Assembly (NCBI GenBank): GCA_015486135.1
Contig: WFSE01000026.1
Coordinates: 1 to 38,814, forward strand
Source: Lentisphaeria bacterium
GTDB lineage: Bacteria > Verrucomicrobiota > Lentisphaeria > Victivallales > JAADHT01
Direction: 5' to 3'
DNA: 38,814 bases
Shown here: piece by piece, positions 4,755-38,814 of the stretch
Numbering within the stretch: position 1 is the first letter of the stretch
How the letters are laid out: every line of letters begins with the position of its first letter
Notes under the pieces: model-generated
Databases searched by the model: none
What the model saw: only the letters and a program-made list of their open reading frames with translations
Told to the model about the DNA's origin: nothing
Position numbers and translations under genes: made by a program

Positions 4755-5050
4755 TTCAGCCCTGGGATGCATTGGAATCATGGGAGATATGGGAAGGAAT
4801 GGGAGTTATGGAAAAATCCGGGAACGCCACAACATGCCAGTTCCGCATGCGGAAGCGGCATCTTCGTGGGCTCTGTGAGCTTCGTGATGAGAGAAATTTT
4901 GAAATACCTTCCACCGTCTGGCGCATTGGCTTTGCGCTACTCCAGTTTCTGTGTGTGCAAATGCATCTTTTAAAGACTTTTTTAACCACAGAGAGCACGA
5001 AGCTCACGAAGTTTTTCCATCTCCGCGGACGGAGATGAAAAAGGCTTGCA
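4755..5050. repeat. dispersed intergenic repeat ending in 'CCACAGAGAGCACGAAGCTCACGAAG' plus hairpin
   Basis: Similar to 35780..36020 and 38560..38814; terminal hairpin CATCTCCG-cgga-CGGAGATG at 5018..5037. Confidence 0.75.
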
Positions 5051-5297: not shown

Positions 5298-5545
5298 CTC
5301 TTTCTCCGCGTCTTCGCGAGGCAACATCTTCTTCTTTTCCTCGCAGAGACGCAAAGCACGCAGAGATAGCAAATCCGAAACCCTAAATCCGAAATCCTAA
5401 ACAAATTCAAAAATTCAAATGCTCGAAACCTTTCCGAGCACCGCCTACCTACAATTTCTACATTTCCTACATGGTAGAAACCTCTTTCCCTTTTCTTGCT
5501 CCGCGTTCTCCGCGTCTTTGCGAGGCAATCTTCGCATTTTGAATT
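5298..5545. repeat. ~250-bp intergenic repeat, inverted relative to 21400..21650
   Basis: Shares CAAATCCGAAACCCTAAAtCCGAAATCCTAAACAAATTCAAAAATTCAAATGCTCGAAACCTTTCCGAGCACCGCCTA(C/T)CTACAATTTCTACATTTCCTACATGG with the reverse complement of 21400..21650. Confidence 0.88.
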
Positions 5546-10719: not shown

Positions 10720-11371
10720 GGATATTCTCGAGTTCGAACGCCGCGTCCGCGCCAGGGGCTTCCAGAACATTGCCGGGGTGGACGAGGCTGGGCGCGGTCC
10801 ACTGGCTGGCCCGGTGGTCGTAGCGGCGGTAAGCTTCGCCGAAGACACCCCGATCCCCCCGGTGGACGATTCGAAGAAACTCTCCGAAAAACGCCGTCTG
10901 GAACTACGGGAAATGATTTTAAGCACCCCTGGAGTGGGCACGGCCGTGGTTGTGATTTCCGCGGAAAGGATAGACGAGATAAACATCCTGAAGGCTACCT
11001 GGGAAGGGATGAGGTTGGCGCTGGAACAACTCGACGCCGTCGATTTCGCATTGATTGACGGCCTTCCGGTGCCAAACCTCCCGGTGCCAAGCGAGGCGAT
11101 CGTGAAAGGTGACTCGAAATCCGCCAGCATTGCTGCGGCGAGTGTTTTGGCCAAGACTCGCCGCGATGAGATAATGAAGGAATACGACACCGTATATCCG
11201 GGATACGGCTTTGCCGCTCATAAAGGATACGGCACGAGGGAGCACATGGAAGCGCTGGCGAGGCTTGGCCCGTCTCCTATACATAGACGCTCTTTCAAAC
11301 CTGTGCGGGACGCGCTGTCGCCCCCTCCGGAGCAACTCGACTTCGACTCCCTATGGGGGGGAAGACGGTGA
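10712..11371 (+). CDS. rnhB: ribonuclease HII (probable GTG start overlapping the holB stop)
   Basis: IAGVDEAGRGPLAGPVVVAAVSF, DDSKKLSEKRR, KGDSKSASIAAASVLAKTRRDEIM. The track ORF starts at 10604; GTG at 10712 is in frame and overlaps the holB TAG. Confidence 0.93.
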   Translation: MVRDILEFERRVRARGFQNIAGVDEAGRGPLAGPVVVAAVSFAEDTPIPPVDDSKKLSEKRRLELREMILSTPGVGTAVVVISAERIDEINILKATWEGMRLALEQLDAVDFALIDGLPVPNLPVPSEAIVKGDSKSASIAAASVLAKTRRDEIMKEYDTVYPGYGFAAHKGYGTREHMEALARLGPSPIHRRSFKPVRDALSPPPEQLDFDSLWGGRR

Positions 11372-11419
11372 TCCGTGAGTCCGTGAATCCGTGAATCCGT
11401 GAATCCGTGAATCCGTGAG
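11372..11419. repeat. 8-bp tandem repeat TCCGTGAA/G, ~6 copies
   Basis: tccgtgag-tccgtgaa-tccgtgaa-tccgtgaa-tccgtgaa-tccgtgag. Confidence 0.95.
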
Positions 11420-11562
11420 TCGGTAGGGCGGAGGAGGAGACGAGGGGACAGGTGTTTGCCCCGTTTTCAAGCGATGAAGGCGCGAGATTCTTGCCTCGCA
11501 AAGACGCGGAGGTCGCGGAGAAAGAGAGGTAGCCACGAATCTTCACGAATCCTCACTAATAA

Positions 11563-11589: not shown

Positions 11590-11772
11590 TAGGGCTCATT
11601 GAATAATGCAGGAATTCCCCCCCCTCGCGGAAATCGCGGACGTTCGTCTAGCTCTAAGGATAAATCGATACCATCGATAGTATCGACATTATCGGTAATA
11701 TCGAGTTTTTCCTAGAAAAAACGACTTAACCCAATGACAATAAAGCACTTGCCAGTTATTCAGCGGACCCTA
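11590..11772. repeat. MITE-like element with L-type termini at both ends
   Basis: TAGGGCTCATTGAATAATGC ... CACTTGCCAGTTATTCAGCGGACCCTA, adjoining the mutS stop codon. Confidence 0.65.
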
Positions 11773-11773
11773 G

Positions 11774-14323
11774 CTACTCCGCCAAATTGTCGAACAGCGA
11801 AGGCTGGATTATTGCAGGTTGCGGTGGGCCATCGCCGTTGTCCTTGTTGCTCGCAGGGGGTTTCCGGCGTTTCGCCAGCGCTGGCTCTCCAGCGTCGGCC
11901 AAAGCGTTGGTTTCCAGATTCTCGAGAATCTCGTTTGCTCTGTCGACCACCGGTTGTGGCAGTCCCGCCAATTTCGCGACGTGAATCCCGTAGCTTTTAT
12001 CGGAGGCTCCGGGAATAATCTGTCTTAGGAATATTATCTGGTCGCCGTATTCCCTTACGGCGACGTTGTAGTTTTTGACCCCTTTCCGAGTCAGGGCGAG
12101 TTCGGTGAGTTCGTGGTAGTGCGTTGCGAAAAGCGCGCGCGCCTTGGATTGCGGGTGGTCGTGGAGGCGTTCGGCCACGGCCCAAGCGATGCTCACCCCG
12201 TCGAAAGTGCTAGTACCCCTTCCAATCTCGTCGAGCACCACCAAGCTCCGCGGAGTGACGTTGTTCAGGATGGTGGCCATCTCGATCATCTCCACCATAA
12301 ACGTGCTGCGGCCACGTGAGATGTCGTCGGAGGCTCCAACCCGGGTGAACACGCGGTCCACTCCTCCTATTTTGGCGCTGTCGGCTGGAATAAAAGATCC
12401 CATGTGGGCCATGATGGTCAGGAGGGCGACCTGTCTTATGTAGGTGGACTTACCAGCCATGTTCGGTCCGGTTATTATCATGAGGCTGCCAGTGTCGGCA
12501 TCCAAGCTAGTGTCATTTGGGACGAATCTCTCCTCGCCCATGGTTGCATCCAGGACGGGATGGCGTCCCCCTTTGATTTCCAGCACCGGGGCATCGGTTA
12601 TTCTTGGACGGTTGTAGCGGAGTTTCGCCGCCCTGTCCGCCAAGCAAGTTATGACATCGAATGCTGCTATCGCCGAAGCTGTGCGTTGTATCGCATCGGT
12701 GCGTTTAGCCGCCATCTCCCTCAACTCCTGGAATAATTTCGCCTCCAGCGCCTTGGACTTGTCCTCCGCGCCGAGAATCTTGTTCTCCATCTCTTTCAGT
12801 TCCGGCGTGATAAACCGCTCCCCGTTGGCGATGGTCTGCTTGCGGATATAGTCGTCTGGAACCAAGTGGAGGTTGGCCTTGCTCACCTCTATATGGTATC
12901 CGAAAACCTTGTTATATTTAACTTTAAGGTTCTTTATCCCGGTTCGTTCCTGCTCCGAGGCCTGCAGCGCCGCTATCCAGCCCTTTCCCTCGGTGGCCGC
13001 CGCGCGGAGTTCGTCCAAATCCGCGGAAACCCCCTCCCTTATGACTCCGCCGTCCGTGGCGGAAGCTGGCGGGTTCTCCACCAGACACCGCTCTATTTCC
13101 TCGACCAAATCCTCGCACCCGTCAAGCCGGATTCTCGTGTCGGCCAGTAACGGAATGTCGGTTTCATCAAGCAACGTCCGCAATCCCGGTACGGCCGCCA
13201 GCCCATTAGCCAGTGCCAGCATATCCCTAGGAGTCGCCGACCCTATGTTCACTCTCGCTATTATCCTCTCCAAATCGCGGACGGGGGCCAGCGCCTCGCG
13301 CGTCTCCGCCAAAGTCAACGGGTCGTCTTTGAAAAAATCCACCGCGTCAAGCCTGGCGTTGACGATGTCCACGCCTCTCGGGGGCTGCAAAATCCATTCC
13401 CGAATCAATCGTCCGCCCATTGGCGTGAGCGTATCGTCCAAAACCCCTAGCAACGTGGAGTCCCTGCCCCCGCCGGGCATAGGCTCGACAAGCTCCAAAT
13501 TCCTCCTGGTCGCGGCATCCAGCACCACATGCGTGCCTGTGTCGTACGGCTTCAGGGTCCGGACGTGCGACGCGTCCCGTCTCAAATTGTCCGACGCATA
13601 ACGTAACACGGCGGCGGCGGCGGTTACCCCGGCAGTCATCCCGGCGCAACCAAACCCGTCAAGCGATGCGACTCCGAAATGGCGGGTCAAAAACTCAACG
13701 GCAACATCCAAATCGAACATCCAGTCATCAATGGGAGTCCAGCATCCCGTTCCGGACGAAGGAGGAGAGTTTCCACTCCACTCCATATCCGATGGCATGG
13801 AGACTGGAAACAGGTGCTCGGAAGGCGCCGCTTTCTGGACCTCCATCTCCAATTCGTCCCAGGAGCCAAGCTCCGTCACCCGAAAATCGCCGGTACTGAT
13901 ATCCAATAGAGCTAAGCCGAATATTTTGCCGATCTTGGCCACCGCGGCGAGGAAGTTATTCGCTGTCGGCGCCAACGCATTGGCCTCCACCACCGTCCCG
14001 GGGGTGATTATCTTTGTTATCTCGCGTTTTACGATTCCCTTCGCCTGTTTCGGATCCTCCATCTGCTCGGCTATGGCCACTTTCACCCCGGCTTCGAGCA
14101 AACGAGGCAAATACGTGTCCACCGCATGATACGGTATTCCGCACATCGGAACGCCCCCGCGGTTAGTCAGGACCACTTCCAAAACCGGAGCCGCGCGCTT
14201 GGCATCCTCGAAGAACATCTCATAGAAATCTCCCAGCCGGAAAAAGAGCACGGAGTCCGGAGGAGCCTCCGCCTTGACCCGCCGGTATTGCTTCATCATT
14301 GGTGTGAGTTTCGCCTCTGCCAT
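11774..14323 (-). CDS. mutS: DNA mismatch repair protein MutS
   Basis: MIITGPNMAGKSTYIRQVALLTIMAHMGSFIPA, VLDEIGRGTSTFDGVSIAWAVAE, FATHYHELTEL. Confidence 0.98.
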   Translation of the reverse strand: MAEAKLTPMMKQYRRVKAEAPPDSVLFFRLGDFYEMFFEDAKRAAPVLEVVLTNRGGVPMCGIPYHAVDTYLPRLLEAGVKVAIAEQMEDPKQAKGIVKREITKIITPGTVVEANALAPTANNFLAAVAKIGKIFGLALLDISTGDFRVTELGSWDELEMEVQKAAPSEHLFPVSMPSDMEWSGNSPPSSGTGCWTPIDDWMFDLDVAVEFLTRHFGVASLDGFGCAGMTAGVTAAAAVLRYASDNLRRDASHVRTLKPYDTGTHVVLDAATRRNLELVEPMPGGGRDSTLLGVLDDTLTPMGGRLIREWILQPPRGVDIVNARLDAVDFFKDDPLTLAETREALAPVRDLERIIARVNIGSATPRDMLALANGLAAVPGLRTLLDETDIPLLADTRIRLDGCEDLVEEIERCLVENPPASATDGGVIREGVSADLDELRAAATEGKGWIAALQASEQERTGIKNLKVKYNKVFGYHIEVSKANLHLVPDDYIRKQTIANGERFITPELKEMENKILGAEDKSKALEAKLFQELREMAAKRTDAIQRTASAIAAFDVITCLADRAAKLRYNRPRITDAPVLEIKGGRHPVLDATMGEERFVPNDTSLDADTGSLMIITGPNMAGKSTYIRQVALLTIMAHMGSFIPADSAKIGGVDRVFTRVGASDDISRGRSTFMVEMIEMATILNNVTPRSLVVLDEIGRGTSTFDGVSIAWAVAERLHDHPQSKARALFATHYHELTELALTRKGVKNYNVAVREYGDQIIFLRQIIPGASDKSYGIHVAKLAGLPQPVVDRANEILENLETNALADAGEPALAKRRKPPASNKDNGDGPPQPAIIQPSLFDNLAE

Positions 14324-21399: not shown

Positions 21400-21650
21400 T
21401 TTGCCTCGCAAAGACGCGGAGATCGCGAAGCAAAAGGGAAAGAGGTTTCTTCCATGTAGGAAATGTAGAAATTGTAGATAGGCGGTGCTCGGAAAGGTTT
21501 CGAGCATTTGAATTTTTGAATTTGTTTAGGATTTCGGGTTTAGGGTTTCGGATTTGCTATCTCTGCGTGCTTTGCTTCCCGCGAGGAAAAGAAGAAGATT
21601 TCGCCTCGCAAAGACGCAAAGAAAGCAGAGAAAGAGAGGGAAGAGGGGAG
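21400..21650. repeat. ~250-bp intergenic repeat, inverted copy of 5298..5545
   Basis: See 5298..5545. Confidence 0.88.
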
Positions 21651-22039: not shown

Positions 22040-23380
22040 TTACAGCACGTCTTCCGGATATGCTTCGATGTTGTGGATAGCCCTGTCGGCTCCGATTATC
22101 TCATCGTGTTCCGAAAGCCTAATACCCATAACGAATTTCGCCAATCCGAAAATCACGAACCCCGACACCAGGGCCAAGGCAATGGCGAAAACGGTCCCTG
22201 CCAGCTGAACGAAAAAATTAAGGTCTTTGGTGGCTCCAAACAACTTCACGTTGCCAAAAATTCCGGCGGCTATTCCTCCCCAGCTACCAGCGACACCATG
22301 CAGGGGCCATACACCAAGGACATCGTCTATCTTGAACCGTTCAGTTTCGATAGTGAACATGAAGAAGAATATCAAACCGGCTATCGCACCTATGGCAAAC
22401 GCCGCCAGCGGATGGACCACGGCGCTCCCCGCGCAAATCGCGATAAGCCCTGCCAACGCGCCGTTATGGGTAAATCCGGGGTCGTTTTTGGATACGATAA
22501 CGCTGGCCAAAATCCCTCCCACCATCGCCATCAAACTGTTAACTGCGACAAGCCCGGAAACACCTTCCACGGATGCCGCGCTCACTACATTGAAACCATA
22601 CCAACCCACGCACAATATCCAGCTGCCCAACGCTAGAAATGGAATGTTCGACACGGACGGGGCGCCATCGGAATAGCGCCTGCGACGCGGTCCCAAGAGC
22701 AATATCGCGGGAAGCGCTAGCCAGCCACCAAACGAGTGGACGACTACCGATCCGGCGAAATCGGTGAAGGGAACGCCTCCCCCTAAACTAGCTATCGCCT
22801 TCCCGACCCCCATGAAGTCGGGATCCCACCAAAGACAACGCTCTAAAACCGGATAGGCGACACCAACCAGGCACGCGTTGGCTATCATTATCGGACCGAA
22901 TTTCGCGCGTTCGGCTATCCCTCCACTGATTATGGCTGGAATGCAGGCGGCAAAGGTAAGATAGAAAAAGAATCTAATGAGCTCTATTCCATCCATGCTG
23001 CCAAGCTGTCCGGCTTTGCACATGAATCCATCCATACCCCTGGCTATGGGATACCCTATCACAAAGTAAATCACCGTGCTGACCGCCCAGTCTACGAGAA
23101 TCTTCTGCAACGCGTTGACCTGGTTCTTCTTCCTTACCGTGCCCAACTCCAGAAAAGCGAACCCTGCGTGCATACTAAAAACCAACACCGCCCCGATAAA
23201 CAAAAACAACACGTCGCCAGCAACGCAAGAAACCGATTTGTCCACGGTTCCGGCCCCAACCCCGTCCGCCGCGTTCGCCGCCACCGCTATCATTGGTAGC
23301 AAGATTATCGAGCATAGCGCTTTCAAGGCCAACCTACCATTTAGGGCTCGCTGAATAATTGGCAAACGCTTTATTTTCAT
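22040..23380 (-). CDS. amt: ammonium transporter (start trimmed to [15 protein letters not shown]...)
   Basis: [75 protein letters not shown]. Start at 23380 lies inside a MITE copy. Confidence 0.94.
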
Positions 23381-23638
23381 GATGTTAAATCCCTTTTTAG
23401 CGGTGTCATCTCCAAGGTTTTGAGAGCAAGCCTCCCAAAAACCTTGGAGACAACTAATATTTTCCACTCAATTTGAGGCACTTGCCAATTCCGCGAAAGC
23501 CGATTCTTCTGTTCGCTATGCGAACCCTCCGGGCTTTGCGGAAGGATTGGCGGTGTTAATTTCACCTCGGAGTGCAAAGCACACCGTCGGCTTAGTGCCT
23601 AGCCGCTGACCCGTTCTCGACTTTTTCAACAAGCCCTA
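23342..23638. repeat. 297-bp MITE-like element, copy 1
   Basis: Ends TAGGGCTCGCTGAATAATTGGC / TTTTTCAACAAGCCCTA; inverted relative to 32709..33005 with shared internal hairpins. Confidence 0.88.
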
Positions 23639-23688
23639 TTTAGCCTTATTTATTTCCGTTCTTTCGGGGGGGCGGGATTAGCATTTTT

Positions 23689-23709
23689 GACTTCTCCTCT
23701 AGGAAAGTC
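23689..23709. repeat. REP-like core, inverted match to 5593..5613
   Basis: GACTTCTCCTCTAGGAAAGTC versus reverse complement GACTTCTCCGCTAGGAAAGTC (20/21). Confidence 0.6.
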
Positions 23710-23916
23710 TATGTGCAAAACCGACCCACCTCCAGGAAACGGCGGCCGAGCCGCCTGGAAAACGCTAACGACTATATCTCCTGCGACGACAATCAAGACG
23801 AATCTTTCGTTTTTAACAAAATCCTAACGAAGAGAGGAGGAGATAAACCACTACCTAAACGTAATCCGGGTTGAATCTTGGGAAATCTTGGGGGCAAACC
23901 TGCACTGTTGACCACT

Positions 23917-23946
23917 TAGGGCCTGCCAATTATTCAGTGAACCCTA
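23917..23946. repeat. solo MITE-terminus hairpin
   Basis: TAGGGCCTGCCAATTATTCAGTGAACCCTA. Confidence 0.65.
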
Positions 23947-23999
23947 GGTACAGGTTAATAGTAGCGTTTTCTCGTAGACTCTGCTCCAATTTCGTTAAT

Positions 24000-26267
24000 T
24001 CAGCGTTCGCACTCGATGATGTCGAGTTCTAGATTGCTGGAATTAGTGAGGGACAGTGTCTTCCGACATCTTTCTCGCTGGGAGAATTGAACGGAACCAG
24101 TCCCAAGGGGGGATGCCGAGACTTTGAGGTCGACATTCCAACCAGGTCTCTGAATAGCCAGCCGCCAAGAGCCTTTTTCGACATACAATCCGCGATTTCC
24201 GCGGAAGGTGGCGGTGAAATCGTCAACGAATGTTGCGACCCCCGAGCGGAACGCGGCGCATAGGGCGGTCCGAGCGTACCGGCTTCTGCCAGTTCCGCGG
24301 GGGAACACTGCCTCGGCGGTTCTAGCACCAGCGAATAAAATCCACGCCCCATCGCAACATCCTTTGACAGAACGTGTGAAATAGACTCTTTCCACCGTGT
24401 CAACCCCGCGTAACCGCATGAATTCCAATATTGCTTGCGTGCGCCTGCTGGATCCCGCATTCACTACAATTGCTCCTCCGGTCCTCCCGAGAGGCAACGC
24501 CACCACAGAGACTTCCTGGCTGACACCTCCGTGGAAAACCGCCACGATTCCAGGCCTGGACATGTCGTGCCAAACCCATGTTGCGACACATGCTCCCAGC
24601 ACCGTCGCGGAAATGAAGAATGTACGCCCAGAGCGCGCTAGAACGACTCCAAGCAACGCTGCGAAAAAAAAAGCCAACGATAATGGAGAAGGAGCGGTCA
24701 GGGTCGTCCAACCACATGTCTCCGCCCCAACACCTCCTACCGTGGAAATGACCGACAACACTGCATTTAAAAGCACTGACATTATCCCGAAATGAACCGC
24801 CGAAAGTGGAAGCGCCACCGCGGCAAAAACGAATAACATCCAAACGAGAGGCACTATTAAAAGATTCGCAAAAACCGCGCCGGGAACGACAATTCCTCCA
24901 TGGACAAGATTCAAACCCGTGGCGGCAAGCCATGCTACCACGCTCGTGGAGAGGGCGTTCACCATCCATCTGAAGACCACCAAGCGAAATCTATATCCCA
25001 AACGCGTGGCGCTAGCTGGCGTGAAAAGAAATTTGACCGACCCGGCGGCAAGCCATTCCGAACTGGAACGCCACGATAAAACCAAAAAACCAGCTATGAT
25101 GAAAGAATACTGGAAGCCAGCTCCCAACACGCTCAATGGCTGGCACACCATTATCGCCGCAGCCGCTAACGCAACGGCGTTCAATGCCGACGCCCTCCTG
25201 AACGCCCCTTTGTTAATAGACCAGATCGATATCATTAGGAACGCCCTCTCGGCGGAGGGCTGCCAGCCCGTAGTGGCAACGTACACCAAAAGAAAAAACG
25301 GAACCAGCCAGTACCGAAGACGAAACGGAATCCAACGAAATAGTAAAAACAATACTGCGGCCAACATTCCCACATGCAACCCAGAAATAGCGAAAATATG
25401 CGCAACTCCGCTACGGATATATTCCATCCGCGTCCCCCTGCCCACCGCCTGACGACAGCCAAACATCAATGCCGCTAGCATTTTGCGGTTGGGATTCGAC
25501 AAGCCCTCGGCGAGACCCGACAGGCACTTGTCGCGAAATATCAACGCCGTGCGGGTGAGGCGAACGCCCAATGGCATCCCGGAGTCCCCCGTCAATTCCA
25601 GTTCCGAGGCCTGGAATATCCGGCGCACCCCTTTGGACAGCAAATGTTGCCGGTAATCGAATCCTCCCGGAACGAGCGGGCCGTGCGGCAAACCCAGCGC
25701 TCCCCGGCCGGTAAATCCCTCCCCATAAATCGACCGGGACGCATGCTTGGGAATCCTAACTAAGGCGATATCGTCCACTCGCCTCCACTTGCCTCCAGAA
25801 ATGAGCCTAACCCGGGTTATCTTCGCCAAGGCTTGCCCGGGGGATGGTAGCCAGGACAAGGCCTTGCCGCCAACCCTGGCATCTATAAAACGCCCCTCCA
25901 CGTCAACGCCGCAATCCGTCGCGGGCAACGCGACATCCAAGCTTCCAGGGCCAGGCTCCAACGCCCCCCGCGCCAAGACAAATCCCAGCGCGGTGAAAAA
26001 CGCGAACTTCGCGGCACGTCTCAACGCAGTGCCCCTGTCACCGCCCAACACCGCCGGACGCAACACCGCTACAATCCAAAACAACGTTACGGGAGCTAGC
26101 GCTAGCGCAATGTCGACGGCGGCTACTCCTCCCGCGAAATCCGCGCCGCGCCTAGCCAATGGAATGATTCCAGCAAACAATCCCCCGGACACCAATAACG
26201 CCGGATTCAAGGTTAAAACATTGGAGAGTCCTTTGGAAATTTCATTGTCTTTGAGCATAGGGAACAT
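24000..26267 (-). CDS. comEC: ComEC/Rec2-family DNA internalisation protein with degenerate C-terminal MBL-like region
   Basis: SGVAHIFAISGLHVGMLAAVLFLLFRWIPFRLRYW, TGWQPSAERAFLMISI; no HxHxDH in the C-terminal region. Confidence 0.88.
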   Translation of the reverse strand: MFPMLKDNEISKGLSNVLTLNPALLVSGGLFAGIIPLARRGADFAGGVAAVDIALALAPVTLFWIVAVLRPAVLGGDRGTALRRAAKFAFFTALGFVLARGALEPGPGSLDVALPATDCGVDVEGRFIDARVGGKALSWLPSPGQALAKITRVRLISGGKWRRVDDIALVRIPKHASRSIYGEGFTGRGALGLPHGPLVPGGFDYRQHLLSKGVRRIFQASELELTGDSGMPLGVRLTRTALIFRDKCLSGLAEGLSNPNRKMLAALMFGCRQAVGRGTRMEYIRSGVAHIFAISGLHVGMLAAVLFLLFRWIPFRLRYWLVPFFLLVYVATTGWQPSAERAFLMISIWSINKGAFRRASALNAVALAAAAIMVCQPLSVLGAGFQYSFIIAGFLVLSWRSSSEWLAAGSVKFLFTPASATRLGYRFRLVVFRWMVNALSTSVVAWLAATGLNLVHGGIVVPGAVFANLLIVPLVWMLFVFAAVALPLSAVHFGIMSVLLNAVLSVISTVGGVGAETCGWTTLTAPSPLSLAFFFAALLGVVLARSGRTFFISATVLGACVATWVWHDMSRPGIVAVFHGGVSQEVSVVALPLGRTGGAIVVNAGSSRRTQAILEFMRLRGVDTVERVYFTRSVKGCCDGAWILFAGARTAEAVFPRGTGRSRYARTALCAAFRSGVATFVDDFTATFRGNRGLYVEKGSWRLAIQRPGWNVDLKVSASPLGTGSVQFSQRERCRKTLSLTNSSNLELDIIECER

Positions 26268-27145: not shown

Positions 27146-27232
27146 CCTTAGCGATAGAGAGAGGGATAATTCAATTCCAAGAAGATTGACGCACACCAAA
27201 AGTGGCACCAATAGAGCAACGAAAAACATATC

Positions 27233-27271
27233 TTAGGGCTTGCTGAATAATTGGGGCTTACTGAAAAAGAC
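27233..27271. repeat. two adjacent MITE termini (L-type then R-type)
   Basis: TTAGGGCTTGCTGAATAATTGGGGCTTACTGAAAAAGA. Confidence 0.65.
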
Positions 27272-28863: not shown

Positions 28864-28894
28864 ATCACACGAACATATGTCTTCAATCCAGTCT

Positions 28895-28957
28895 TTTTTA
28901 ACCACGGAGTTCACGAAGTCCACGAAGGTTTGCGCTTTTGCGGGCAAAAGCGCAAAC
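28895..28957. repeat. 'CCACGGAG..CACGAAG..CACGAAG' repeat with 14-bp perfect hairpin
   Basis: GTTTGCGCTTTTGC (28928..28941) - gg - GCAAAAGCGCAAAC (28944..28957). Confidence 0.85.
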
Positions 28958-32337: not shown

Positions 32338-32708
32338 ACATCACGCCAATCATATCCCGACACCTCTGCAAATCAAGGCTGGCGAATCCATGTCCCGACC
32401 GGAATTCGCCATGCCAGAACCATTCTAAATGGGGCTTGCTGAAAAAGGCGAGAACGGGTCAGTGGCTCCGCCTTCACATAAAGCTTATTCCTTCGTTACA
32501 GCTACGGCGAGTAATCAATAATTTGTAGCGTTTTGGACACGATGGCAGAGTGTCCTGGCGAAGTGAAAGGCTCCTTTAAGTCATGCGAACGTGTGTCGCG
32601 GAATTGACAAGTGCCGAAACGCAACTTAACCTGATAGAAGCGGATAGGGTTCGCTGGACAACTTGGCGGTTATTCTGGATAGCTTGTGCAAATAATCGGG
32701 GAAATAAG

Positions 32709-33005
32709 TAGGGCCTACTGAAAAAGTCGAGAATGGGTTAGTGGCCGGGCAATAAGCCGACGGTGTATAGGCATACTCCGAGGCGAATTTAACGCCGCTA
32801 ATCCTTCTGCAAAGCCTGGAGGGTTCGCAAGTGAACGGAAGGATCGGCTTTCCTGGAATTGGCAAGCGCCTCAAATTGAGTGGAAAACATTCGTCGTCTC
32901 CAAGGGGGTTGGGAGGTTTGCTCCCAAAACCTTGGAGACAACACCATTAAAAAGAAATTTAACCCAATGGAAATTAGGCACTTGTCAATTATTCAGTGAG
33001 ACTTA
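32709..33005. repeat. 297-bp MITE-like element, copy 2
   Basis: TAGGGCCTACTGAAAAAGTCGAGAATGGG ... GGCACTTGTCAATTATTCAGTGAGACTTA; reverse-complement match to 23342..23638. Confidence 0.88.
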
Positions 33006-33008
33006 AGT

Positions 33009-33779
33009 ATGTCCGGATTGAACGACATCAACGAACAAGTCAAGCGGGCCAACCGCGAGGTTTATAACGCCAAGACGGTTGAAGGCTACAACCAAAACGA
33101 AAGCATTTTTAACGAAAAAAGGCGATTGGACTGCGAAACTAAACTCTCGGAATGCGCCGCGCTAGCGGGAAATGATATGTATTTGGATGTCGGAGCCGGC
33201 ACTGGCAACCTGCTCAGAATAGCGTTGCCTATCTTCAAACGATGCCACGCTATCGATATTGGCGATGAGTTGCTGGCGCGCGTCAAACCCTCATTCCCCG
33301 AAGTCCATCTCGTTGCCGCCGACGGAGAGTTCCTCCCTTTCGCCTCGAACTCTTTCAACGTGGTCTCTTGCTACGCCATGCTACACCACTTGTTCCGTCA
33401 CGACAAGCTCTTTGAGGAATGCCTCCGGGTCTTGAGGAAGGGAGGGGTTCTATATACGGACCATGACCCCAACTACTTCCTAAACCGTTTTTACCGAATC
33501 ATTTATAAACTGCGGTTCGCGGGTAAATGTGGATTTGGAAGCGAAGTGGAGGATTTGGCGGAATACTACAACGCAAAAGCACCTGGAATTAATCCCAGCA
33601 AATTAAAACGCCAATTGCTAGAGGCAGGTTTTAAAACGGTGGAGATATCTTATAGGATAACCGATAAACCAAACCAAAGCCACGCAATGTCCGTGGCCAC
33701 CGCTATCCTCAAGGCCACTAGTGCCATAGTGCCTCTCAAAAGCTTCTTCACTCATTTTTCCATCAAGGCAATAAAGTAA
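33009..33779 (+). CDS. class I SAM-dependent methyltransferase
   Basis: MYLDVGAGTGNLLRIALPIFKRCHAIDIGDELLARVK, NSFNVVSCYAMLHHL, VLRKGGVLYTDHDP. Confidence 0.9.
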   Translation: MSGLNDINEQVKRANREVYNAKTVEGYNQNESIFNEKRRLDCETKLSECAALAGNDMYLDVGAGTGNLLRIALPIFKRCHAIDIGDELLARVKPSFPEVHLVAADGEFLPFASNSFNVVSCYAMLHHLFRHDKLFEECLRVLRKGGVLYTDHDPNYFLNRFYRIIYKLRFAGKCGFGSEVEDLAEYYNAKAPGINPSKLKRQLLEAGFKTVEISYRITDKPNQSHAMSVATAILKATSAIVPLKSFFTHFSIKAIK

Positions 33780-33991
33780 GGCTTGCTGAAAAGTCGGAAA
33801 CGTGCCGATGATTCCGCCTTCGCATAAAGCCGCGGCGGGACATGTCGGGCCTTGCGGAAGGACAGGCCCAAGGGGTTTTGGAGGTTTGCTCCCAAAACCT
33901 TGGAGACGACACCGCCAAAGATAGATTTAACACTATCATAATCAGGCATTTGCCAATTATTCAGCAGACCCTAATTGTTCAGCGGTCCCTA
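33777..33991. repeat. MITE-like element, copy 3, plus an extra terminus
   Basis: TAAGGCTTGCTGAAAAGTCGGAAACG ... TTTGCCAATTATTCAGCAGACCCTA (33973), then ATTGTTCAGCGGTCCCTA. Confidence 0.82.
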
Positions 33992-35716: not shown

Positions 35717-36136
35717 TAGGGCCCGCCGAGGAATTCGCAAGCTTCCGGGAAGTCTATCCGCAGATGGGACTTCGGGGATTTTCAGCCCTAGGGGCTATGG
35801 GAATTATGAGAGTTATGGGAAAAACCCCTTGGCTTCAACGTGCTGGTTCCGCACGCGGAAGCGGTGTCTTCGTGGGCTTTGTGCTCTCCATGGTGGGATA
35901 ACTCTTAAAAACACGGATCTGCAGCCTACAACATTGGCATTGTGCGCCAAGCTATTTTTATGTGTGTTTCTGAAGGCTTTTTCTAAGACTTTTTTAACCA
36001 CAGAGATTACGAAGCTCATCCCTCCGCAAAGCCCGACATGTCCCGCCGTCTTGTCCCGCCGCGGCTTTATGCGGAGGCGGAACCCTAGGCGAAGGCGGAA
36101 TCATCGGCACGTTTCCGACTTTTTCAGCAAGCCCTA
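35717..36136. repeat. composite: MITE-like ends enclosing a copy of the 4755..5050 repeat family
   Basis: TAGGGCCCGCCGAGGAATTCGCAAG ... CGTTTCCGACTTTTTCAGCAAGCCCTA; interior matches 4755..5000. Confidence 0.7.
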
Positions 36137-38559: not shown

Positions 38560-38814
38560 ATATGCCGGGTCCGCAACGCGGAAACGACATCCCCAGGCCT
38601 GTCCTTCCGCAAAGCCCGCCAAGGTTCGCGGAGCGAACGGAAGGATGCTCTCTGTGGTTGAATAAATCTTAAAATACGGACCTGAAGTCTACAACGTTGG
38701 CATTGTGCGCAGCCTGTTTCCGTGCCCACCTGGCCGTCTATTTAAAGACTTCTTTTTACCACCGAGAACACGAAGCTCACGAAGTTCCGCATCTCCGTCA
38801 GCGGAGATGCGAAA
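38560..38814. repeat. dispersed CACGAAG-hairpin repeat, truncated by the window end
   Basis: Matches 35840..36020; hairpin CGCATCTCCG-tcag-CGGAGATGCG at 38788..38811. Confidence 0.8.

What the first reader, a model, noticed from the sequence alone, without database searches (positions are those of the whole stretch)
23342..23380. MITE copy provides the RBS, start codon and first ~13 codons of amt
Seen: amt reads [23 protein letters not shown]...; [13 protein letters not shown] is encoded by the MITE end (CCTTTTTAG..ATGAAAATAAAGCGTTTGCCAATTATTCAGCGAGCCCTA on the minus strand), with AAGGGA upstream as a plausible RBS. The same frame appears elsewhere without a gene (MTIKHLPVIQRTL at 11734; IIIRHLPIIQQTL near 33940). 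Inference: the element replaced the n-region of the Amt signal peptide and its translation initiation site.
Basis: partly seen in the sequence, partly recalled or inferred. Interest (0 to 1): 0.7.

Follow-up and report, generated by a model that had tools for sequence, protein, structure and literature searches.

The report
Mobile repeat supplies gene start sites
In one uncultured Lentisphaerota-related bacterium a short mobile DNA repeat, present in about 270 places and in none of 60 relatives examined, carries its own 'start translation here' signal; in the ammonium-transporter gene it adds only an optional upstream start, but in at least four other genes it has replaced the original start.

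Summary
Window 23342-23638 is a ~297-bp MITE-like element with terminal inverted repeats and TA..TA ends. On the minus strand one end reads RBS-like AAGGGA, then ATG and 13 codons ([13 protein letters not shown]), open into amt. The 24-nt end occurs 273 times in this genome (reversed control 0) and in none of 60 relatives.

For amt the inference is only partly supported. Orthologues without the element start at the residue matching codon 19 (TTG, 23326-23324), five codons past the element. The native signal peptide and a TTG site with Shine-Dalgarno pairing are intact, and orthologues in G004 and G023 also seem to start with TTG. So the n-region was not replaced. At most the element adds an 18-residue extension, though its ATG is predicted to be far more accessible than the TTG.

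The mechanism is better shown elsewhere in the genome. In a PseC-type aminotransferase, two NAD-sugar enzymes and a zinc-ribbon protein, plus probably two lipoproteins, the frame begins inside the element. Element ends mutated to a perfect GGAGG are enriched just before gene starts (6/13 v 25/324, p=0.0004).

New variant of a known kind: Yersinia RU-2 forming part of a signal peptide is a precedent.

The parts
23342..23638 (-). MITE-like element copy, TAGGGC...GCCCTA on the + strand, lying between amt and the comEC-like gene; its ATG-bearing end faces amt
   Evidence: 82% complementary copy at 32705-33006; 60 BLAST matches in the own genome; 273 end motifs; absent from 60 relatives
23342..23380 (-). 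element end: ATG plus 13 codons, [13 protein letters not shown], in frame with amt
   Evidence: sequence; family consensus ATGAAAATTAAGCACTTGCCAATTATTCAGCGAGCCCTA
23390..23395 (-). AAGGGA, Shine-Dalgarno-like, about 10 nt from the element ATG; inside the element
   Evidence: duplex energy -5.1 kcal/mol, family consensus -5.6
23405..23454 (-). strong hairpin inside the element, just upstream of the Shine-Dalgarno-like site
   Evidence: fold of 23290-23460 minus: -51.5 kcal/mol, z -2.98
23324..23326 (-). TTG codon 19, the likely native amt start; downstream of the element
   Evidence: aligns with the start Met of orthologues in G003 and G015; SD pairing -6.7 kcal/mol
22040..23326 (-). amt, ammonium transporter (native extent proposed)
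   Evidence: PF00909 E 2.2e-86, TIGR00836
21685..22026 (-). P-II nitrogen regulator downstream of amt
   Evidence: PF00543 E 1.5e-27

Best explanation
A lineage-specific MITE family has expanded in this genome. One end of the element carries an outward-facing Shine-Dalgarno-like site, ATG and a short open frame (MKIKHLPIIQ.AL). Shown: at amt a copy sits 15 nt upstream of the in-frame TTG that orthologue alignment marks as the native start, leaving the signal peptide intact and adding an in-frame upstream ATG. Inferred: amt is made from the native TTG, from the element ATG (18 extra residues on the n-region), or from both. Shown at sequence level elsewhere: several conserved genes have lost their native start to the element, so translation of them must begin within element sequence or in a neighbouring repeat. 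Inferred: selection kept or tuned these element-derived start sites.
For: Element and copy number. Restricted to this genome among 61 searched. Native amt start at codon 19. Start takeovers: orthologues MKKILITGGAGFVGSN, MKI(L/M)LTGASGLLG and M(L/I)PYGKQSIS against IQRAL-VTGGAGFVGSH, IQRAL-VTGASGMLGSE and GTL-PYGRQSIS, the SDR alignments to solved structures starting at element-encoded residues; zinc-ribbon protein MSDRHLPVVQRAL-CQECLTPYTPG; lipoprotein-like MSIKHLAIIQRAL-YAHCFLLVLLTIGCSS. Frame: no excess overall (22, 24, 16 downstream open frames, p 0.43), yet the genes without a start of their own are all in the ATG frame. Selection: GGAGG-type ends 6 of 13 followed by an ATG gene within 14 nt against 25 of 324, p 0.0004; synonymous share of codon changes 7:8 in fused copies against 79:301 in unfused, p 0.026.
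Against: No transcript, ribosome or peptide data. At amt the native TTG is intact, so its element start may be idle. The synonymous test rests on few changes and both selection tests were devised after seeing the data. Some fused genes (L120, L118) carry only the last ~50 nt of the element, preceded by a different repeat, so simple insertion is not shown there. The genome is a draft in 195 contigs and only 55% of it was read in full. No autonomous partner was found.
Confidence: 0.75

Rival explanations
1. One reading: the element ATG is the sole or main start of amt and the element now supplies the n-region.
For: Element ATG with SD -5.1 kcal/mol lies in unstructured RNA, opening 4.4-6.2 kcal/mol; the TTG costs 11.3-14.8. 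ATG is in general a stronger start than TTG (general knowledge). Frame open throughout.
Against: Orthologues start at codon 19; the TTG costs about as much to open in the reconstructed empty site (11.4-12.9), where it must have worked; a sigma-70-like match at 23409-23382 would start the transcript past the element ATG.
Confidence: 0.35
2. The element only interrupts the leader of amt; the in-frame ATG is an accident and never used.
For: Insertions that leave native starts intact show no frame preference; chance of an open in-frame link is roughly 10-15% per well-placed copy; native TTG intact with SD.
Against: The element site is accessible and resembles sites that must be used in other genes.
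Confidence: 0.3
3. Fusions are assembly artefacts of a repeat-rich draft genome.
For: 195 contigs, some ending in element copies.
Against: Junctions keep frame in every gene without its own start, and the orthologue match begins exactly at the element end; copies are diverged (about 75-93% identical), which helps assembly.
Confidence: 0.07

Closest known systems
RU-1/RU-2/RU-3 (ERIC-type) enterobacterial MITEs, Delihas 2007, PMC2759123
   Same: Element-encoded open frames fused to genes; RU-2 gives residues 1-30 of YPO1552 and forms part of its predicted signal peptide
   Different: No statement in the passages read of a conserved outward RBS plus ATG at an element end, nor of native starts of conserved enzymes being replaced repeatedly in one genome; sequences unrelated in what was compared here (not aligned)
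QMITE1/QMITE2 of Coxiella burnetii, PMC5896051
   Same: High-copy MITEs with open frames altering gene ends
   Different: That paper reports no QMITE affecting the 5' end of genes of known function; here 5' ends are affected
Rickettsia palindromic elements, as described in the review PMC10969869
   Same: In-frame fusion of a repeat-encoded peptide to genes
   Different: RPEs are inserted within genes; here the element supplies or precedes the start
IS630/Tc1-mariner-related MITEs (from general knowledge)
   Same: Element ends bounded by TA, palindromic A+T-rich flanks
   Different: No transposase with these ends found, so the affiliation is only a lead

Membership tests
MITE | short element with terminal inverted repeats | tested here: met
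   TAGGGCTTGCTGAAAAAGTC against AATTATTCAGCRAGCCCTA ends; 78 full-length copies of about 130-380 bp
MITE | no transposase of its own | tested here: met
   copies of ~250-330 bp, longest internal frames short
MITE | high copy number, dispersed | tested here: met
   273 end motifs over many contigs
MITE | target-site duplication | tested here: inconclusive
   copies end in TA at both sides and flanks are palindromic, compatible with a TA duplication; exact 2-3 bp matches outside TA in 42 of 78
MITE | autonomous partner with the same ends | tested here: inconclusive
   none found with PF13358, PF01609 or end pairs 0.7-2.6 kb apart; genome 91% complete, 55% read in full
RU-2-like element providing a signal-peptide n-region (amt) | native start or n-region replaced by the element | tested here: not met
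   native start aligns to codon 19, beyond the element
RU-2-like element providing the gene start (other genes) | native start absent, frame begins in the element | tested here: met
   L094:3542-4702, L120:4416-5498, L168:2705-3607 by orthologue alignment; L197 by reading and Zn-ribbon domain
any of these | translation from the element start | not testable with these tools
   needs peptides or ribosome profiling

The most novel reading that the evidence does not exclude
The element behaves as a mobile translation-initiation module: one end keeps an outward Shine-Dalgarno plus ATG, and insertions at gene starts survive because the element restarts translation, so that many genes of this genome, amt possibly among them, now begin in element DNA tuned by selection.
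Probability: 0.35. Interest if true: 0.75.

Novelty: new variant of a known kind. Interest (0 to 1): 0.55.

Why it matters
Bacterial repeats are usually thought to damage genes when they land in a 5' end, and the Coxiella study read here found none there in genes of known function. A repeat that brings its own start can land on a start codon and leave a working gene with a new N-terminus, which gives a simple, testable route for mobile DNA to reshape protein starts and translation rates. It also warns that automatic start calling can go wrong next to such repeats, as amt shows.

Tried and rejected
A general excess of in-frame copies was looked for and not found: 22, 24, 16 by frame. An autonomous transposon was sought by end pairs and by PF13358 and PF01609 without success. 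A closely related species with amt but without the insertion was sought in genome contigs; the nearest was 75-76% identical, the same family as G003. Paper searches for MITEs that provide start codons gave nothing closer than Delihas 2007. Considered and set aside as takeovers: L100 (own ATG right after the element), L106+14518 (own ATG at the junction), L196 miaA (GTG at the junction), L118 NifA-like (TTG two codons past the junction), L126 apgM (ATG further in), L102 TlyA (ATG inside the end by mutation). L191, L118-4157 and similar frames have no domain or were not scanned, and look like chance frames.

Full report
Observation. The minus strand from 23380 to 23342 encodes [13 protein letters not shown] and continues open into a clear ammonium transporter, PF00909 at E 2.2e-86, followed by a P-II gene. 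The 39 bases are the end of an element of about 297 bp, 23342-23638, with a second copy in the window at 32705-33006 in the other orientation. In the own genome (2.98 Mb, 195 contigs, 91% complete) there are 60 BLAST matches and 273 places with the 24-nt end at up to 3 mismatches, none for the reversed pattern. The end was found in none of 60 relatives, three of them in the same family. By its nearest Amt relatives (Kiritimatiellota/Victivallales/Lentisphaerae MAGs) the host is a Lentisphaerota-related bacterium; that is an inference, the genome itself is unnamed.

Anatomy of the element. From 78 full-length copies the consensus is TAGGGCTTGCTGAAAAAGTC...CTTGGAGATGACACCGCTAAAAAGAGATTTAACCCAATGAAAATTAAGCACTTGCCAATTATTCAGCGAGCCCTA, sizes about 130-380 bp. 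The ends are TA on both sides and the flanks are palindromic and A+T-rich, which fits a TA target; this is compatible with, not proof of, an IS630/Tc1-type partner, and no partner was found. One end carries an outward AAGRGA/AAGGAA, ATG and a short frame. Of 157 ATG-type ends in the 1.63 Mb read, 101 have ATG, 32 ATA; the codon after CAG is TGA in 55 and mostly open in the rest.

amt. Orthologues without the element start at the residue that matches codon 19: G003 MKTVATLLLLLGVVSAGLAAE, G015 MKKVVTLCTLAAMCAAASAQE, window (L)[20 protein letters not shown]. Orthologues in G004 and G023 have no in-frame ATG at their signal peptide and appear to start with TTG. Joining the flanks at TA gives GGCTAAATAAATGGTAGGTTGGCCTTGAAAGCG, in which a TAA lies just upstream and only TTG codons can start the frame (reading by eye). 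So the gene probably started with TTG before the insertion and that site is still there, with Shine-Dalgarno pairing of -6.7 kcal/mol against -5.6 to -8.7 in orthologues. The element did not replace the n-region. It does add an upstream ATG with pairing of -5.1 in open RNA: opening the site costs 4.4-6.2 kcal/mol against 11.3-14.8 for the TTG, because the element end pairs with the native start region. The long form would have an n-region of about 21 residues before the same hydrophobic core. Which start is used cannot be told here. Four sigma-70-like matches in 23250-24000, against 1.0 expected, include one at 23409-23382 that would make a transcript too short for the element ATG; these are consensus matches only.

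The same element elsewhere. Three genes in other contigs have lost their native starts to the element by orthologue alignment: an epimerase-family enzyme (L120:4416-5498, IQRAL-VTGGAGFVGSH against MKKILITGGAGFVGSN, 58-66% identical), an RmlD-family enzyme (L168:2705-3607 minus, IQRAL-VTGASGMLGSE against MKILVTGSSGLLGSD and the like), and a PseC-type aminotransferase (L094:3542-4702, TIGR03588 466 bits, GTL-PYGRQSIS against M-LPYGKQSIS, 72% identical). In the first two, sequence alignments to solved structures begin at element-encoded residues, R-A-L being the start of the first strand of the nucleotide-binding fold. A zinc-ribbon protein starts MSDRHLPVVQRAL-CQECLTPYTPGTHFCPKC (L197). Two lipoprotein-like proteins start MSIKHLAIIQRAL-YAHCFLLVLLTIGCSS (L203) and MKTKQFAIIHRAL-KTRFFAHEGPLAAAIVVCALLASSC (L147); their lipobox reading is by eye and L147 can also be read from an ATG further upstream. 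In L120 and L118 only the last ~50 nt of the element is present, after a different repeat.

Is it more than chance? Overall, copies followed by a long open frame show no frame preference: 22, 24, 16, p 0.43. Genes that keep a start of their own after the element are found in all three frames. Genes whose conserved sequence begins at the junction without a start of their own (L094, L120, L168, L203, L197) are all in the ATG frame, (1/3)^5 = 0.004; among the late-start frames scanned in the other two frames the only domain touching the junction was a truncated one, L180, missing its first 75 profile positions. A second sign is independent of frame: element ends in which one base change makes CAGGAGG, a perfect Shine-Dalgarno core, are followed by an ATG gene within 14 nt in 6 of 13 cases against 25 of 324 for other ends, p 0.0004; two are an ispF-type gene and a GHMP kinase gene whose ATG shares the last A of the element. 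A third: codon changes in fused copies are synonymous more often (7 of 15) than in unfused copies (79 of 380), p 0.026. All three tests were chosen after looking at the data; the third is small.

Known precedents. Delihas 2007 (PMC2759123) described RU-2 forming residues 1-30, part of the signal peptide, of YPO1552. The 2024 review (PMC10969869) describes Rickettsia elements in frame within genes. The Coxiella paper (PMC5896051) found no element at the 5' end of genes of known function. The case here is the same kind with a difference: a conserved outward start signal and repeated takeover of native starts in one genome.

Verdict. The sequence observation is confirmed. For amt the takeover is not supported and the use of the element start is open. 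For the genome the idea is well supported at sequence level and untested at the protein level.

Noticed in passing
window 33005-33779 (+): Another element copy ends 4 nt before the ATG of a methyltransferase gene (PF08241 E 2.8e-21), so its leader and any Shine-Dalgarno are element DNA.
   Followed up: partly
window 27229-27251 (-): An element end lies 3 nt upstream of the ATG of a 97-aa frame without a Pfam match.
   Followed up: partly
window 11716-11772 (+): A solo element end abuts the 3' end of mutS (11774-14323 minus); its ATG frame runs 94 aa antisense to mutS.
   Followed up: partly
L175:12463 and L178:17277: GHMP kinase and ispF-type genes whose ATG shares the last A of the element, with CAGGAGG made by the element 4-5 nt before.
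   Followed up: yes
L094:15124-15996 (+): Aldo/keto reductase gene starting MVEKPIIQQTL-ILGCAQLGLAYG: the ATG comes from a different repeat joined to a short piece of the element end.
   Followed up: partly
window 5348-5494 and 21432-21578: A 147-nt inverted pair, 97% alike, of another repeat family; several more repeat families crowd the intergenic stretches.
   Followed up: no
window 4968-5006, 28884-28922, 35980-36018, 38741-38779: Repeat TTTTTTAACCACAGAGAGCACGAAGCTCACGAAG in several copies.
   Followed up: no
window 11371-11426: Tandem 8-bp units ATCCGTGA.
   Followed up: no
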